Virus record (IMG/VR): IMGVR_UViG_3300032214_000715
Location: 1-64,000 of that record
From: a virus
Strand: one strand, 5' to 3'
Length of the DNA stretch: 64,000 bases
Under the pieces are notes generated by a model. It worked only from the letters and a program-made list of their open reading frames with translations, made no database searches and was not told the origin of the DNA. This document shows positions 29,650-62,339 of this stretch, one piece after another. How positions within the stretch are numbered: position 1 is the first letter of the stretch; every line of letters begins with the position of its first letter. The translations under genes were made by a program, and so were the position numbers.

Positions 29650-30462
29650 ATGTATTTAGCATACGTGTATAGACTTACACACAAAATTAATGGGCATTTT
29701 TATATAGGATATCGATGTAGAAACATAAAACTCAAACTTCTTCCAGAAGATGATTTGGGAGTAGTATACTTTACTTCGTCAAAATATATTAATAAAACCA
29801 ATTTTTCTGAATATCACGCTGAGATATTATTTAAATCAACTTCTTCAAATGAAGCATATGATTTTGAAAATAAACTCATACAGGAATCTTGGAATAATCC
29901 CTTATTACTGAATAGAAGTTTTCAACAAAACGGAAATCTTAGATTCAAAATAACAGAGGACGGGTCTAACAAGCTGAGTAAACTAAATAAAAATAAAAAA
30001 TGGTATAACAACGGCGTCAAAGAAATTTATTCTCACTATAAACCAGATAATTTTGAAGAAGGGAGACTTAAAAATCCATTTCCAAAAAATAAAGGGTGGA
30101 CAAAAAATTATAATTGGTATAATAACGGGAACAAAGAAATACTTCTCGAAAAAGACAAAGTTCCTCCTTTCGGATTTATTAAAGGAAAATTACCTGCCAC
30201 AGAAGATACTAATAAAAAAATTAGTATCACTATGAAACAAATTGCCCCAGCAAAAGGAAAAAAATGGTATACTAACGGAAAACAGTCTGTTTTGACACAC
30301 AAGTGCCCACATGGGTGGAATCCAGGACACTCGCATGGATCAGGAAATTCTCATTTAAATAGAGATTACAGCGGCTATCATTGGTATACAGACGGAAAGA
30401 ACACTATAAGGGCACGAGAGTGCCCAGAAGGATTTTCATTAGGAAGAAAAGTTAAATTCTAG
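29650..30462 (+). CDS. GIY-YIG homing endonuclease
   Basis: 270 residues. N-terminal GIY-YIG signature [19 protein letters not shown]-terminal DNA-binding part has four repeats around K-x-W-Y-x-(N/D)-G ([48 protein letters not shown]), a NUMOD-like array. AGGAG precedes the ATG. It lies opposite to its neighbours and its 3' end overlaps the convergent clpP gene by 11 bp, typical of a recently inserted free-standing homing gene. Confidence 0.8.
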
Positions 30463-31036
30463 AATTAATTACTTTGTCGGCTAATCCAAAATTAACTGAT
30501 GACTGAGCGTCCATATAGTTATCTCTAGTCATTGCTTGCTTTAATTCTTCTACACTTTTTCCGGTATTTTTTGAATATATATCTATAAGTGTATTATTCA
30601 GTCTAATCATTTCTTCCATTTGAATTTCTGCATCCCACACTGTTCCACGCGACCCGCCAGAAACAGAATGAATCATGTGTCTTGCTCGCGGCAATATAAA
30701 TCTTTTACTTTTGACGCCAGCACTCGCAAGTAAACTACCCATTGAGCAAACGCTTCCGATAGCTATGGTACTTACGTCGCAACTTATAAAATCCATAGTG
30801 TCCAATATAGCCAATCCAGCTGTAACAGACCCACCGGGACTATTAATATAGAGATGAATATCCTTATTGGAATCTTCGCTTTCTAGAAACAATAATTGAG
30901 CTACAATTAAATTTGCCATTTGATCATTAACTTCGCCTTCTAATAAAATAACTCTGTCTTTTAGAAGACGACTATAGATATCCATAGCCCTTTCGCCTTT
31001 TGAAGTGTTCTCAATTACCATTGGTACTAGTGCCAT
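30452..31036 (-). CDS. clpP: ClpP serine protease subunit 1
   Basis: 194 residues. Catalytic triad intact: S98 (GSVCSMGS), H123 (HMIHSVSGG), D172 (TRDNYMDA). [15 protein letters not shown] and GLADKVI are family landmarks. Forms the proteolytic chamber fed by ClpX/ClpA. Overlaps clpP2 by one base (TAATG). Confidence 0.93.
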
Positions 31037-31641
31037 TATTTAACCTTTCTTGTTGTTGAGTTTGTAATCATTTGTGTGGGTGTGGATATCATATCGCACA
31101 CTTTAAATTTTAGTGCCTCTTCGGCGCTAAGCCAACGATCTTGCGCCGGCAATAAGTATTCTTTTATCACATCATCGTCCGCTTCAGTACAAAGACGATA
31201 ATTTTCTATCATCCTTGTGTGAGTCAACTCATATTCACGCATAGTAGCAAAAAGCTCGTGTAGTTTTCCTTCGTTATACCAACTAAATTGATGAGATAGT
31301 ATGCTTGTATTTGGAGTTAGTGTTCTACGACCCTTTGTACCGTTCATAAAAATAAGTAATCCACAACTAGCAATCTGCCCTAGACCTACTGTTTTAATCG
31401 GTATGTTGCTGTTTCTCATTACATCAATCAGAGCAAAAGTAGTTTGTAATTCTCCGCCCTCGCTACAGATCAGTAACTGTAACTCAGTCTTTTTTTTCTT
31501 AGAAACGTAGTTTTCGTACAGAATCCATTCAATAACCGGCTTTATTGACTCGTCATTTACTTCGCCCATAAACACGTATATTCCGGAATTATTCAATGCT
31601 TCAGAATGCGTGCTATCAGTGTCTTCTTGTTCAGTTGCCAT
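31036..31641 (-). CDS. ClpP-like serine protease subunit 2
   Basis: 201 residues, divergent. Triad still present: S92 (GQIASCGLL), H117 (ILSHQFS), D168 ([12 protein letters not shown]). [18 protein letters not shown] replaces the usual S-P-G-G. The acidic N-terminal 18 residues are extra. Likely forms a mixed ClpP1P2 tetradecamer with the adjacent gene product, as in bacteria with paired ClpPs (inference). Confidence 0.85.
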
Positions 31642-53459: not shown

Positions 53460-54194
53460 TTACATCAGACTGATGTTTTCTTTTTGTGTTTCTTTAGAAA
53501 ATACCGCTAACTGAGTTCTGTTACGAACTTTGTGCTTCTTTAGCAATGCGCTCATGTGTAATTTAACAGTGCTCTCACTTATGTTTAACATCTTGGCAAT
53601 AATCTTGTTACTGACGCCGCGATTGGCCACAAGATTAAAAATCTGACGCTGACGAGGAGTCAGATTAATAGTATTTTTAGATTCGTTGCTTTTTTTCTTT
53701 CGTGACAAAATTTCTTGTACTTGCGAAGGAATCGTAGTATCATTATTAATGATTGCTCGTAAAGACTTTGCGATTTCATCGTCACTAAACCCATCACCTG
53801 TTCTCAGACCAATGAATGAAACCATTGGCAAAGACATTACTTCTTTAATGTACTCGGCGGGTGTTTTTGTTCCCACCAAAATAACAATTTTTGTCTTACG
53901 TTGAACAAAAGCTCCGTTTTCGTCGCGAACTAGCGTACAAGTAAGAAGCGTGTTGATCGTATTAAGTAGAGCAAAAATATCAACATTGTTGACATGATAT
54001 AGCTGCTCCAAGTCAACACTGATATAATCACAGTAAAAATCTTCTTTGCTAAGTAGCGGTAACAGTTCCTTTACTCCGTCTAAAGAAACAAATTCTATTG
54101 GAAATTCTTTTACTAATTTGTCATGTAGACATTGCCCTTGACTAGGATTAATGTCTGGGCAAATTGTAATCATAATTTTGTTATCTTGTGTCAT
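53460..54194 (-). CDS. LuxR-type transcriptional regulator
   Basis: 244 residues. C-terminal LuxR HTH: LTPRQRQIFNLVANRGVSNK, IIAKMLNISESTVKLHMSAL. N-terminal domain is receiver-like in layout (IMITICPDINPSQ ... YISVDLEQL ... KIVILVGT) but lacks a clear phospho-Asp/Lys set. Start by GGGAG. Probably controls phage or host genes late; an 11-bp palindrome lies in its promoter. Confidence 0.75.
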   Translation of the reverse strand: MTQDNKIMITICPDINPSQGQCLHDKLVKEFPIEFVSLDGVKELLPLLSKEDFYCDYISVDLEQLYHVNNVDIFALLNTINTLLTCTLVRDENGAFVQRKTKIVILVGTKTPAEYIKEVMSLPMVSFIGLRTGDGFSDDEIAKSLRAIINNDTTIPSQVQEILSRKKKSNESKNTINLTPRQRQIFNLVANRGVSNKIIAKMLNISESTVKLHMSALLKKHKVRNRTQLAVFSKETQKENISLM

Positions 54195-54358
54195 GCTGTA
54201 CTCCCTTGTTTTGTGATGTGCTAAGTATATATGATTATTGTCACTGTGACTAGATATGCCCTGGTACAATATAGACTACAGTAGTAGTACTATTTTTGAC
54301 CAAAAGTAATCTGGTGGCTTATTTTAGTTACGAATAACTGAAGAAAAATTATATAGCG
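54195..54358. promoter_or_regulatory. Upstream region of the LuxR-type gene
   Basis: Minus strand TATACT about 30 nt before the ATG; 17 bp upstream lies GTCACA, part of the palindrome GTCAC-A-GTGAC (about 54239-54249). Nothing else recognised in the 164 bp. Confidence 0.4.
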
Positions 54359-56474: not shown

Positions 56475-57347
56475 ATGTTTATTTATTACGTTTACGCATA
56501 CCTCAGAAAAGATGGCACACCCTACTACATTGGTAAGGGTAAAGGTTACAGGGCGTGGATAGATCACCGTAAAAAGAAGAATGGAAAACTTATTGGAGTA
56601 TCAACACCAACAGACAGAAGTCGAATAGTTCTTCTAGAGACTAATCTGAGTGAAGTTGGAGCATTGGCGTTGGAGCGTAGATACATCATTTGGTATGGAC
56701 GCAAAGACAACAAGACAGGAATCCTTAGAAACCTTACCAATGGTGGTGAAGGATTGTCAGGAATAGTTAGAGATCCTGTAAAATTTATGGGGGAAAAGAA
56801 TGGAATGTATGGTAAAAATCATACAGAGAAAGTTCGCACTGAGCACTCTCAAAGAATGCTTGGGAACAAGAATGGGTGTGGATGGGAACCTACTCCCGAG
56901 CAGCTTGCCAAGATGAGGCATCGTGCAAAAAACAGAGAACAGAAAGTCTGTCCTCATTGTGGAAAGAGTGTCAGCGGATCAAATTACACACGTTGGCATG
57001 GTGACAACTGTAGAGTTATTTTAGATCCAGTATTACTGGAGAAACGTGGATCAAAGTTTAGAAAAGAAAAGATAAAGTGCTTATATTGCGATGGTGAATT
57101 TATACCATGTAGGTATCATGAACTGCACGGGGAAAATTGTTCTAAAAGTCCTTCTAAAATTGCCACGCGAGAAGAGAATAGAAGAAGATCGTTAGACTTG
57201 AGACCAGAGTATACATGTGAATACTGTAGTATAAAGACAAAGACCCGCACCAACTACACGAGATGGCACGGGCCTAATTGCAAGGACAGTATCAGATGTC
57301 GTAGCGAGGAATCATTACTGCCTTCCTCATTACAAATTCTGGGGTGA
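56475..57347 (+). CDS. GIY-YIG homing endonuclease with zinc fingers
   Basis: 290 residues. [26 protein letters not shown]. The catalytic Arg/Glu region follows ([11 protein letters not shown]-like, ALERRYI). C-terminal half has three C-x2-C ... (W/L)HG-x-x-C units: [60 protein letters not shown] precedes the ATG. 3' end overlaps the convergent Ro60-like gene by 56 bp. Confidence 0.82.
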
Positions 57348-58719
57348 ACTGCTCACTGTCTCCACTCAGCACTGCACTAGCGATAGCAGGTGAGAACCCA
57401 CTAACCAGTGCAACACCGCTCTCATCAAACTTGGCAGGTGCATGTCCTGAATGGTTTAGGTTCCAGAAAACGATGCGGGGCACTTGATAACCTGCTTCTT
57501 CGTATTGACGAGCGATCATTTGCATGGCACTCTCGGATACGCTTACAGACTGGTCAAAATTCATGTCACTTAGGATCACCAGAGTTCCTGGCATCTCAGA
57601 CTGACCTACGCCAGCATTGACTGCGGTTCTCAGGATCAACTCCATGGCCGCGTTCAAGTTGGTGTTCATGCCCCAATCACTCCTAGTCATCTGAGCGATC
57701 TTCTCGGTGATAGTGCCCTTCAAACGCAGCAGTTCCGGTTGTGCGCTGAAGGTCAGAAAACAGTCCTTGAATACGCCACTGTTCTTGTCAGCGAAGTACA
57801 GACCAAGACTCACAGCAACATCCATGCAAGACAACTCGCTCTTACTGTTACGACCACCGACCTTACAGGTCATACTGCCACTAACGTCTACTAGAGGCAG
57901 AACACTAGCGTCACCGATGAAGTCGGGCAGTGCAGCCCACTGTGCTTCAATCACCGCGATCTCATCAGCAGAGACTTCACTCTCACGCATCCAAGTGTCG
58001 ATAGGGGTGATGTGACCCTTCAACACATCATAGGGGTATACTGCGCTGGCCGAAATTTTTACACCGTCCTCACCCTTGATCAGAGACTGGACATACTCAC
58101 TGTACTTGGCTGTGTTGCGACCAAAAGCCTTCTTGTAACGTGCGTGAGCAACACTAGGAACATGGCTGAAGTTGATGTTGTCCCAGTCCTTGGCGCACAT
58201 CTGGGACTCCACGACCTTAGTCAGACCGACCAACATCTTGCGGTAAGCCTTAGGGCTCAGACCCATGAAGACGCGCAGTTCCAGTGCCAGCGGACCCTGA
58301 CGAGGCATCCACTTCGCGCACAGTCCGTTTCCAGACTTCAGCGCATCACTGATCATGGTGTATGCTACCTGCTTGAGTTCAGGTGTCATTACGACCAACA
58401 GATCGTCCCAACGGCCCAACTCAGGCAACTTGGTCATAAGACGCATTGCGTCCTGTGGGTAGTACTGCTCCATGTGAAGCAGAATGTCCCGAACCAGTTG
58501 TCGTTCGCCGCTACCACCACGAGCATCACGGATCCACTGTACCACGCGCAGTGTCAGTTCGCTGTCCTGCACGTATGCAGCTACGAACTTAGGCACAATG
58601 CCAACACCACGGGTAGCGCCGTAGAACAGGTCTATCACAGCGTTAGCGGTAGCCACACGTGCTACCATACCGTTCTCGGTAACGGTCAGTTGATTGTCGA
58701 TTGCTTGTGCGAATGTCAT
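57292..58719 (-). CDS. Ro60-like TROVE/vWA-domain protein (DUF2828-like)
   Basis: 475 residues. N-terminal helical-repeat part (about 1-265) with [19 protein letters not shown] and [11 protein letters not shown], as in TROVE/DUF2828 proteins; C-terminal von Willebrand A domain with intact MIDAS DVSGS (278-282), a Thr in MNTNLNAA and Asp in LSDMNFD. Ro60 (bacterial Rsr) rings bind Y RNAs and misfolded RNAs and can tether PNPase. A Y-RNA-like RNA lies just upstream on the same strand. AAAGGA precedes the ATG. Confidence 0.8.
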
Positions 58720-58875
58720 TTATTTTTTCCTTTCAACAGATTAGTTATCATTGGTCCTATCACGGTCTCCAGCCAGATTCGGGCTTTTTTATAGTGATTA
58801 AAATTGGTTGCTGGATCTAATCTAAGAACTTATTATATGTTACTTACTATTTTTAGTCTACAAATTCGGATAAAC

Positions 58876-58989
58876 TGTATACGTTTCTTGCCTGCTGCTC
58901 TGCCGACTGAGCTACATCTCACATTTGAGAGATGGAAGGACTCGAACCTTCGACACACTGGGTGATTTAATCGTTGCTGTATGTATACA
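58876..58989 (-). ncRNA. Y-RNA-like (YrlA-type) RNA with tRNA-like domain
   Basis: Order on the minus strand: closing strand TGTATAC; T-arm GAAGG-TTCGAGT-CCTTC (58935-58951); acceptor strand CATCTC; 8-nt loop; acceptor strand GAGATG (58915-58920); TA; D-arm GCTC-AGTCGGCA-GAGC (58897-58912); closing strand GTATACA (58876-58882). The tRNA halves are in permuted order with the acceptor capped, as in bacterial Y RNA tRNA-like modules, and the ends pair to form the putative Ro60-binding stem. Exact ends uncertain. Alternative: permuted tRNA gene. Confidence 0.65.
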
Positions 58990-59381
58990 AAAATATAACA
59001 GGATGATCGATACGGGTATTTTATTTCTCTGCTTGCCCCTTACACTAAAGGATTTTGTATCACAAGCACAGTCTAAATCGTTTAGACCCGATCCTAGTAT
59101 CTTGACTAGACACAAAGTTGGCTAACCCCAACAGGACGATTAGTTGACTAATCAGTTCAGAGTATTTTAAATTGCCGAAATCATCCTAATCAAATAACGG
59201 GATAGTTGTTGCCTTCTTTTATTCAAGTGAGAAATGCTAGACTCACCTCGACCGGATAAACATAAAACGCTTCACAGGTTGCCCTCTGCAAGATATGTCT
59301 ACTTTGCCCAGTCCATCCATAATTTTATGAATTTGCTGTACCTATCCCAAATCTCTTTGTTGTTACGATAGATGTATTATG
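58990..59381. other. Hairpin-rich non-coding region upstream of the Y-like RNA
   Basis: About 390 bp without a credible gene. Several perfect hairpins: GTCTAAA-TCG-TTTAGAC (59071-59087), GTTGG-CTAAC-CCAAC-like at about 59117-59133, GATTAGT-TG-ACTAATC (59138-59153), GTGAG-10 nt-CTCAC (about 59227-59246). Could hold further Y-like RNAs or a larger structured RNA. Confidence 0.45.
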
Positions 59382-60841: not shown

Positions 60842-60931
60842 TGGCGGATAGTGTGAGATTCGAACTCACGATAGAATTTCTCCTATGACGGTTTAGTAGA
60901 CCGTTGGTTTCAGCCGCTCACCCAACTATCC
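60842..60931 (-). tRNA. tRNA-Ser, anticodon ACT
   Basis: Acceptor GGATAGT/ACTATCC, D-loop with GCGGCTGAA, anticodon stem ACGGT/ACCGT with loop CTACTAA (anticodon ACT at 34-36), class II variable arm ATAG...CTAT, T-arm GTGAG-TTCGAAT-CTCAC, discriminator G and encoded CCA. All 7 acceptor and 5 anticodon pairs are perfect. A34 is unusual; the normal form would be GCT. Near tilS. Confidence 0.88.
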
Positions 60932-61701: not shown

Positions 61702-61727
61702 TCTAACGCTTTTTGGGAGCATCAGCA

Positions 61728-62339
61728 ATGTATTTACACTATATCATCTATCGTGTCCAACATAAAAATGGACACTACTATATTGGACGACACGCTACAA
61801 ATAATCTCAACGATGATTATATTGGTAGCGGCACTTGGTCCAGAAGCATAAAAAATCCAAACAATGTTAGCAGAATCATTTTGGAAGTTTGCCAAAATGA
61901 ACAGCACTACATTGAGCGAGAACAATACTATTTGGATTTACATTTTGGCAAGCCTGGATGTATGAACCAAAGTAATAGGGCTACAGGATTTCCCTGCGGT
62001 GAAGCACACCATATGAAACAGCCCAAAAATAGACTCAAACATTCTATTCGCCAAAAGTCTTTAGGTAGTAATCATCATTTTAATACTCCAGAGAATCGCG
62101 AGCGTATGCGTATCAACAACCCCGGATCATTCCCAGAGAATCGTGCTCGTGCCTCTAAACAACTATTAGAAAACAATCCAATGTATGATCCTGTAGCATT
62201 AGCAAAGATAAGCGGTGAAAATCATTGGACAAAAAACAATGCCCACTTAAAAACTTGTGAGCATTGTAGTATTGCCGACATATCCAAATCGAACTACACC
62301 CGATGGCACGGTCCCAAATGTAAGTCTATTACATTGTAG
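61728..62339 (+). CDS. GIY-YIG homing endonuclease with zinc finger
   Basis: 203 residues. YIIYRVQHKNGHYYIGRHAT core, ERQYYLDLHFG-like Glu region, and a C-terminal [19 protein letters not shown] finger like those of the 56475 gene. GGGAGC before ATG 61728; homologue starts (MYLAY, MFIYY) support it over an upstream codon. 3' end overlaps the convergent phosphoesterase by 11 bp. Confidence 0.82.
   Translation: MYLHYIIYRVQHKNGHYYIGRHATNNLNDDYIGSGTWSRSIKNPNNVSRIILEVCQNEQHYIEREQYYLDLHFGKPGCMNQSNRATGFPCGEAHHMKQPKNRLKHSIRQKSLGSNHHFNTPENRERMRINNPGSFPENRARASKQLLENNPMYDPVALAKISGENHWTKNNAHLKTCEHCSIADISKSNYTRWHGPKCKSITL

What the first reader, a model, noticed from the sequence alone, without database searches (positions are those of the whole stretch)
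57292..58989. Phage-encoded Ro60-like protein with an adjacent Y-RNA-like tRNA mimic
Directly upstream of the TROVE/vWA gene and on the same strand, the sequence holds a T-arm (GAAGG-TTCGAGT-CCTTC), an acceptor strand CATCTC, 8 nt, the matching strand GAGATG, and a canonical D-arm (GCTC-AGTCGGCA-GAGC). This is a tRNA in permuted order with a capped acceptor, and the outer ends can pair (TGTATAC/GTATACA). Bacterial Y RNAs bound by Ro60/Rsr carry exactly such tRNA-like modules and are encoded beside Rsr. A complete RNP (ring protein plus tRNA-mimic RNA) in a T4-like phage could steer RNA decay or tRNA-modifying enzymes during infection. The neighbours (TilS, tRNA-Ser, YkuK-like RNase H fold, omega-like) are also RNA-related.
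Basis: partly seen in the sequence, partly recalled or inferred. Interest (0 to 1): 0.92.

Follow-up and report, generated by a model that had tools for sequence, protein, structure and literature searches.

The report
Phage Ro60-like protein with Y RNAs
A phage gene for a ring-shaped RNA-binding protein, related to the human autoantigen Ro60, sits just downstream of four tandem small RNAs built on one shared stem, one of which copies a tRNA in rearranged order, and the same kit recurs in many phages, so that phage-made RNA machines of this kind can now be tested directly.

Summary
A covariance model built only from other phages finds the tRNA-like RNA (58989-58872) at E=5e-13, Rfam's YrlA model finds its core at E=8.5e-6, and 20 of 22 pairs show two-sided changes across 21 loci. 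The protein folds like TROVE/Rsr.

It is one of four tandem RNAs upstream of the gene (59348-58734). All share a 7-bp end-to-end stem followed by NNN-CAGCAA. Offset tests, strand asymmetry and shuffles show this is not chance. The arrays occur beside the gene in 45 of 46 nonredundant viral loci, 14 of 21 named phage lineages and 47 of 63 bacterial-contig loci. The inserts differ: permuted tRNA, linear tRNA pieces, two other large folds, short hairpins. The last element usually ends 17-31 nt before the start codon (window: 18 nt), so the Ro gene's mRNA leader is itself such an RNA. Some related phages carry the same hairpin inside real tRNA genes.

Phage Ro60 and YrlA were already known (mycobacteriophages, jumbo phages). 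The shared stem, the array, its reach, the leader element and the tRNA insertions appear new. Best reading: a phage Ro60-Y RNP that tethers different effectors. RNA binding, expression and function are unproven.

The parts
57292..58719 (-). Ro60/Rsr-like gene, 475 aa (DUF2828 + DUF7788 vWA, phrog_850); MIDAS residues D278, S280, S282, T353, D385 invariant
   Evidence: Pfam/PHROGs; alignment A2 of 25 sequences; AlphaFold model pLDDT 76, pTM 0.71 matching PDB 9kop E=5e-10 and 2nvo E=7e-7
58872..58989 (-). Y3: tRNA-like Y RNA, 7-bp outer stem TGTATAC/GTATACA, ATA-CAGCAA, permuted T-arm / capped acceptor / D-arm, tail GTTT
   Evidence: R2 model built without the window, 73.7 bits E=5.4e-13; Rfam YrlA 34.8 bits; covariation over 21 loci
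58935..58951 (-). T-arm of Y3 (GAAGG TTCGAGT CCTTC)
   Evidence: sequence; 100% of cells paired in A3
58915..58934 (-). capped acceptor-like stem of Y3 (CATCTC, TCAAATGT, GAGATG)
   Evidence: 97.6% of cells paired, all 6 pairs with two-sided changes
58897..58912 (-). D-arm of Y3 (GCTC AGTCGGCA GAGC)
   Evidence: 97.6% of cells paired
59195..59348 (-). Y1: class-B Y-like RNA, stem GGGATAG/CTATCCC, GTA-CAGCAA, T-arm-like hairpin near the 3' end, tail GTTA
   Evidence: strict motif scan; alignment A5 with 19 homologues
58996..59187 (-). Y2: class-C Y-like RNA, stem AGGATGA/TCATCCT, TTT-CGGCAA, tail GTTA (a competing inner 3' arm TCGTCCT-GTTG at about 59129 gives a 59-nt form)
   Evidence: motif scan; alignment A6 with 9 homologues, inner helix with two-sided changes
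58734..58823 (-). Y4: Y-like element forming the 5' leader of the Ro60-like gene, stem AGATTAG/CTAATCT, ATC-CAGCAA, tail GTTG; 14 nt separate the tail from the ATG
   Evidence: motif scan; R2 model 23.6 bits E=0.018; last element ends 17-31 nt before the start in 41 of 45 loci
58832..58860 (-). promoter-like site TAGACT-17 nt-TATAAT, 8 nt before the first base of Y4
   Evidence: sequence; chain-opening elements elsewhere often carry TTGACA-17-TATAAT
60842..60931 (-). tRNA-Ser (neighbour)
   Evidence: ARAGORN, Rfam 53.7 bits
60975..61577 (-). TilS-like PP-loop protein (neighbour; the name TilS is inferred from the PP-loop family match)
   Evidence: PF01171 E=1e-37

Best explanation
The locus encodes a phage Ro60-Y RNA ribonucleoprotein system. 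A Ro60/Rsr-like ring protein is made together with a tandem set of small RNAs that share one Ro-binding handle: a 7-bp stem joining the RNA ends, then NNN-CAGCAA opposite an A-rich strand. Each RNA carries a different effector module on that handle. Y3 carries a tRNA mimic in circularly permuted order, as in bacterial YrlA, and would dock enzymes that recognise tRNA (modification enzymes, nucleases such as host PNPase, or anticodon nucleases) onto the ring, steering which RNAs are processed or decayed during infection. Y4 is the leader of the ring protein's own mRNA, so surplus protein probably binds it and limits its own synthesis. Shown: the protein fold, the RNAs and their pairing, their co-conservation and layout. 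Inferred: binding, tethering, autoregulation and effect on infection.
For: Fold matches TROVE 9kop and Rsr 2nvo. tRNA-like RNA: leave-one-out model E=5.4e-13, 97% of 460 cells paired, 142 two-sided changes against 41 +/- 5 in shuffles. Handle: of 93 CAGCAA motifs in the 800 nt upstream of 46 nonredundant genes, 75 have the exact reverse complement of the 7-mer lying 3 nt before them within 300 nt downstream, against at most 8 at any other offset and 0 of 33 in the coding region at that offset. 197 elements on the gene's strand, 8 on the other, 5 in shuffles. 45 of 46 loci have one or more, and the last ends 17-31 nt before the gene in 41 of 45. Named phages across many hosts; bacterial-contig loci 47 of 63 against 6 of 63 on the opposite strand. 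Promoters precede 33 of 77 chain-opening elements but 6 of 68 internal ones. Literature: YrlA's stem binds Rsr and its tRNA-like domain binds PNPase in RYPER, and YrlA is a substrate of DusA and TruB (PMC8394870).
Against: No binding or expression data for this phage. The protein does not match Pfam TROVE by sequence and its fold match is moderate (TM 0.55). The outer handle differs in sequence from the Rfam YrlA consensus, and Y3 is below Rfam's gathering score. Several phages with the protein show no element within about 4 kb (Ci1, Munch, OC, CBB, 1.081.O, PG-2021_27, avDM12). The closest viral relatives (L001-L008, L010) have handles but no tRNA-like module close to the gene, so the tRNA mimic is not essential to the system.
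Confidence: 0.68

Rival explanations
1. Decoy and repair platform: the tRNA mimics, several with intact anticodon loops, lure host anticodon nucleases or other tRNA-targeting defences, and the ring protein holds the decoy or its cleaved product for RNA ligases.
For: Anticodon stem-loops of canonical shape kept in several mimics (loops CTTGTAA, CTGAAAA, CTTATAA, CTGGTAA). RNA ligase or RtcB genes within a few kb in P100, Munch, LAh_9, CBB. The rtc operon in Salmonella links Rsr, Y RNA and tRNA cleavage, and its authors raise competitive inhibition (PMC7790460).
Against: The window's own mimic has no anticodon arm. No RtcB or T4 Rnl1 was found in this record (the second has no working control). 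YrlA was not cut by the Salmonella nuclease (PMC7790460).
Confidence: 0.25
2. Cis-acting elements only: the stems are processing, attenuation or leader signals of tRNA-array and Ro-gene transcripts, bound by the protein but not acting as free RNAs.
For: Tandem placement within one transcript, the last element in the mRNA leader, internal elements without promoters, elements inside tRNA arrays.
Against: Large inner modules with their own covariation, and elements downstream of the gene in mycobacteriophage and staphylococcal phages, which cannot be leaders.
Confidence: 0.12
3. A circularly permuted tRNA gene that is cut and rejoined into a functional tRNA, as in some algae and archaea.
For: Permuted order; some relatives keep all four arms and a 7-bp acceptor (L012); related phages carry the same hairpin inside CCA-encoding tRNA genes.
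Against: Y3 lacks an anticodon arm, has 6 acceptor pairs and no CCA in its cap. No splicing enzyme is known here.
Confidence: 0.04
4. Chance pairing or leftover tRNA fragments next to an unrelated vWA gene.
For: Large tRNA arrays do produce the permuted order across neighbouring tRNAs.
Against: Leave-one-out score, covariation, the offset test and strand asymmetry.
Confidence: 0.01

Closest known systems
Bacterial YrlA Y RNA (Rfam RF02553) with Rsr, and the RYPER complex with PNPase
   Same: Permuted T-arm, capped acceptor and D-arm on an end-to-end stem, beside a Ro60-fold gene; Rfam's model finds the core
   Different: Outer handle is a 7-bp stem with NNN-CAGCAA rather than the Rfam consensus; score below the gathering threshold; four tandem RNAs with unlike modules; one is the Ro gene's own leader; some phage mimics keep an anticodon arm
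Mycobacteriophage Ro-like protein and YrlA (phage Y RNAs reported by Chen et al. 2014, RNA 20:1715; paper not held, known through citations)
   Same: LeBron (L088) has the protein, a full-length YrlA match and the same 7-bp stem with CAGCAA, in a run of three elements
   Different: LeBron's elements lie downstream of the gene; the window's lie upstream and its leader is one of them
Ro60-like genes in jumbo phages (PMC7824862, PMC7765460)
   Same: Ro60/TROVE-type protein in large phages
   Different: The passages read there report no array of RNAs or shared handle
Listeria phage CKA15 (PMC12282133)
   Same: Rsr-like CKA15_055; the authors suggest nearby abundant RNAs may be Y RNAs
   Different: Their most abundant candidates (CKA15_059-061) lie inside a ROOL RNA (90.1 bits); the actual Y-like array is three elements directly upstream of CKA15_055

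Membership tests
Ro60/Rsr (TROVE) protein | Sequence match to Pfam TROVE | tested here: not met
   Pfam hits are DUF2828 and DUF7788 only, no TROVE at E <= 0.01; profile search of PDB gives Ro60 weakly, E=0.023
Ro60/Rsr (TROVE) protein | HEAT-repeat ring plus vWA fold | tested here: met
   Foldseek against PDB: 9kop TROVE E=5e-10, TM 0.55; 2nvo Rsr E=7e-7; the other listed matches are mostly vWA domains. Model confidence moderate
Ro60/Rsr (TROVE) protein | vWA MIDAS residues DxSxS...T...D | tested here: met
   D278, S280, S282, T353, D385 invariant in 25 diverse sequences
Ro60/Rsr (TROVE) protein | Binds Y RNA on its outer surface and misfolded RNA in the ring | not testable with these tools
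   needs biochemistry
YrlA Y RNA | Rfam gathering score of 69 bits | tested here: not met
   34.8 bits, E=8.5e-6, model positions 24-84; LeBron's full-length match also stays below it at 39.8
YrlA Y RNA | Permuted tRNA-like domain: T-arm, capped acceptor, D-arm | tested here: met
   97% of cells paired, covariation 0.864 against 0.239 in shuffles
YrlA Y RNA | Ends pair into a stem that carries the Ro-binding site | tested here: inconclusive
   A conserved end-to-end stem exists but its sequence differs from the Rfam consensus and binding is untested
YrlA Y RNA | Encoded beside an rsr-type gene | tested here: met
RYPER | Y RNA tethers Rsr to PNPase | not testable with these tools
   host unknown, no biochemistry
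Permuted tRNA gene | All four arms and a mature acceptor end | tested here: not met
   window Y3 lacks an anticodon arm and has no CCA site

The most novel reading that the evidence does not exclude
Phages run a general Ro60-linked tRNA-remodelling system: one handle hairpin is used both as the stem of free-standing permuted tRNA mimics and as an insertion near position 29/30 of genuine CCA-encoding tRNA genes, the two being circular permutations of each other, so the ring protein may hold, open or splice phage tRNAs.
Probability: 0.08. Interest if true: 0.95.

Novelty: new variant of a known kind. Interest (0 to 1): 0.76.

Why it matters
Bacterial Ro60-Y RNA function is known in detail from very few organisms. 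Here is a defined sequence handle that predicts Y-like RNAs beside Ro60-like genes in well-studied laboratory phages (Listeria P100, Aeromonas LAh_9, mycobacteriophage LeBron, Escherichia phage SUSP2), so partners, modules and effects on infection can be tested by simple deletions and pull-downs. The arrays offer natural swaps of effector modules on one stem, a direct way to ask what each module recruits and why phages keep tRNA mimics. It also gives a testable autoregulation site, and links Y RNAs to interrupted phage tRNA genes.

Tried and rejected
Single-sequence folding energy: not informative (z=-1.17). Rfam at the gathering threshold: finds only tRNA-Ser in the window. Pseudoknot between CAGC and the 3' GTTG tail: rejected on geometry (a 3-nt linker cannot span the helix; inference) and because the tail varies (GTAA, GATT, GAAA). 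Permuted hits with long caps inside tRNA arrays were rejected as junctions of neighbouring tRNAs. That Lak megaphage 'enigmatic' tRNA introns (PMC6784885) are this hairpin: three long Lak-C1 tRNAs checked, no clear CAGCAA hairpin, although Lak-C1 has similar handle-like sequences with a 4-nt gap upstream of its Ro-like gene (by eye). That the abundant CKA15 RNAs are Y RNAs: they fall in ROOL instead. RtcB in this record: no match; T4 Rnl1 search had no working control. A second viral scan with a distant homologue gave nothing.

Full report
OBSERVATION. ARAGORN and Rfam at curated thresholds find only tRNA-Ser in the window, but a sensitive Rfam search of the 701 nt region returns a single family, YrlA, 34.8 bits, E=8.5e-6, on 58958-58894(-), with the permuted T-arm, capped acceptor and D-arm aligned to the YrlA model.

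PROTEIN. The 475-aa product matches DUF2828, DUF7788 and phrog_850 ('RNA-binding protein', E=4e-126). tblastn finds it in 682 of 50,697 phage records, all below 60% identity, best 45.8% in Synechococcus phage BUCT-ZZ01. It does not match Pfam TROVE by sequence. An AlphaFold model from 44 window and IMG/VR sequences (pLDDT 76, pTM 0.71) has as its best PDB matches a TROVE domain (9kop, E=5e-10, TM 0.55) and D. radiodurans Rsr (2nvo, E=7e-7); the other listed matches are mostly vWA domains. The MIDAS residues are invariant in 25 diverse sequences. So it is Ro60-like by fold, with a complete vWA metal site.

tRNA-LIKE RNA IN OTHER LOCI. Scans of 80 IMG/VR loci around homologues and of named phages recovered the permuted module, each time enclosed by a 7-bp stem, in loci L009, L012, L013, L027, L029, L030, L041, L051, L054, L055, L057, L060, L061, L065, L068 and, among named phages, SUSP2, LeBron, phiM12 and Enterococcus phage Bop (two copies). 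On 21 such RNAs (alignment A3) the 22 pairs of the window's structure are formed in 97.0% of cells (66.1% in shuffles, 38-45% when slid by 1-3 columns), 20 pairs have changes on both sides, and the covariation score is 0.864 against 0.239 +/- 0.022. Caveat: members were picked partly by their ability to pair. The clean test is R2, built from 17 loci without the window: it scores window 58989-58872 at 73.7 bits, E=5.4e-13.

THE SHARED HANDLE AND THE ARRAY. Reading the upstream sequences showed that loci without a tRNA-like module still carry short RNAs with the same ends. The handle is: 7-nt arm (consensus AGGATNN), 3 nt, CAGCAA, insert of about 40-250 nt, A-rich run, complementary arm, then GTTG or similar. 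The window holds four on the gene's strand: Y1 59348-59195, Y2 59187-58996, Y3 58989-58872, Y4 58823-58734 (for Y2 the scan stopped at a nearer inner arm, the long form is read). Tests: 197 elements on the gene's strand against 8 on the other and 5 in shuffles over 519 kb. Of 93 CAGCAA motifs in the 800 nt before 46 nonredundant genes, 75 have the exact reverse complement of the 7-mer at offset 3 within 300 nt; no other offset exceeds 8; in coding sequence it is 0 of 33. CAGCAA occurs 4.0 times per kb in the last 400 nt on the gene's strand and never on the other. 45 of 46 loci have at least one element, and the last ends 17-31 nt before the gene in 41 of 45.

REACH. Named phages with handle elements near the gene: P100 and CKA15 (three upstream), BUCT-ZZ01, DLP_6, SUSP2 (downstream, in a tRNA array), LeBron (three downstream; the middle one is a full-length YrlA match), LAh_9 (seven, two overlapping the annotated gene start), Campylobacter PC14, Vibrio nt-1 (one, 2.7 kb away), Milchi (about 3 kb downstream), phiM12, Staphylococcus SEP9 and BE22 (three downstream), Enterococcus EF5 and Bop, Vibrio MS02; that is 14 of 21 lineages. 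Homologues on contigs filed as bacterial genomes, including complete chromosomes (AP018533, NZ_CP067089), show elements within 1.5 kb on the same strand in 47 of 63 loci, against 6 of 63 on the opposite strand, and R1 finds tRNA-like members there, for example in Mycolicibacterium sphagni, 64 bits. Many of these contigs may be phage or prophage DNA; this was not sorted out.

MODULES. Inserts fall into kinds: permuted tRNA mimic (Y3); linear D-arm, anticodon-arm, T-arm with the handle in place of the acceptor (L065, L066, L068); anticodon plus T-arm (L016, L027, L047); class B with a T-arm-like hairpin and AAAAAGTAGAAAAC (Y1, 20 aligned members); class C with an internally covarying helix (Y2, 10 aligned members); and short hairpins of about 55-65 nt. 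In several permuted mimics a five-pair anticodon stem with a seven-base loop of canonical shape survives (CTTGTAA, CTGAAAA, CTTATAA, CTGGTAA); the window's mimic has lost it.

TRANSCRIPTION. TTGACA-17-TATAAT type promoters precede 33 of 77 elements that open a chain and 6 of 68 internal ones; in L001, L005 and L009 the -10 box ends 7-8 nt before the first base of the last element. The window's Y4 has TAGACT-17-TATAAT-8 nt before its first base. So the Ro-gene mRNA would begin with Y4. Autoregulation is inference from this layout.

REST OF THE GENOME. The record is 239,163 nt. A 26-tRNA array lies at about 73.6-87.6 kb and contains two more short handle elements, 76661-76606 and 76230-76171(-).

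LINK TO tRNA GENES. Some related phages carry 112-118 nt tRNA genes, mostly with an encoded CCA end, whose D-arm and anticodon arm are separated by the same hairpin run the other way round: A-rich, 3' arm, GNNN, 5' arm, NNN, CNGCAA (BUCT-ZZ01 x2, Ci1 x2, avDM12 x2, LAh_9, MS02, and L040/L043/L045). Topologically the permuted Y RNA and the interrupted tRNA are circular permutations of each other. What this means is open.

MECHANISM. Known for bacteria (PMC8394870; PMC7790460): the YrlA stem binds Rsr, the tRNA-like domain binds PNPase, giving a machine for structured-RNA decay; YrlA is modified by DusA and TruB; in Salmonella the operon answers to tRNA fragments. By analogy the phage ring protein would be tethered through each handle to whatever the module recruits. 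I give identity as a Ro60-like protein with Y-like RNAs about 0.9, tethering of RNA-processing enzymes about 0.5, and a decoy role against tRNA-cleaving defences about 0.25. In CKA15 the Rsr-like protein was found in purified virions (57% coverage; PMC12282133), so it may be delivered with the DNA; this is not tested for the present phage.

NOVELTY. Phage Ro60 proteins and phage YrlA are published, so the core claim is not new. I found no paper in the held library on the shared handle, tandem arrays, leader element or tRNA insertions, but key papers (Chen 2014; Sim and Wolin 2018; Sim 2020) are not held and may describe part of it. I therefore call it a new variant of a known kind.

Noticed in passing
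L083 5575-5686 and 5705-5817, L084 5876-5989 and 5997-6109, L090 1364-1479, L101 3707-3819, L102 7659-7771 and 7793-7910, L040/L043/L045: tRNA genes of 112-118 nt, most with an encoded CCA end, interrupted between D-arm and anticodon arm by the same handle hairpin in circularly permuted form.
   Followed up: partly
L097 1539-2090 (Listeria phage CKA15), L082 3438-3989 (P100): ROOL RNA (RF03087, 86-90 bits, just below its gathering score) covers the small ORFs CKA15_059-061, published as the most abundant phage transcripts and guessed there to be Y RNAs.
   Followed up: yes
G000:C1 73600-87600 (beyond the window): Array of 26 tRNAs with two more short handle RNAs at 76661-76606 and 76230-76171(-).
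   Followed up: partly
L101 3632-3878 (Vibrio phage MS02): Two tRNA-like halves interlock: each T-arm half pairs its acceptor with the other's D-arm half, inside one outer handle.
   Followed up: partly
56475-57347(+) and 61713-62339(+): Homing-endonuclease-like genes (GIY-YIG/phrog_314 related) flank the block; the first overlaps the 3' end of the Ro-like gene on the opposite strand.
   Followed up: no
30452-31036(-) and 31036-31641(-): Two adjacent ClpP-type head maturation protease homologues (phrog_94).
   Followed up: no
53460-54269(-): LuxR/GerE-type DNA-binding protein (PF00196) in a phage genome.
   Followed up: no
L181 4700-5010 (Lak-C1): Lak megaphage has handle-like sequences with a 4-nt gap upstream of its Ro-like gene; its long tRNAs do not show the hairpin clearly.
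   Followed up: partly
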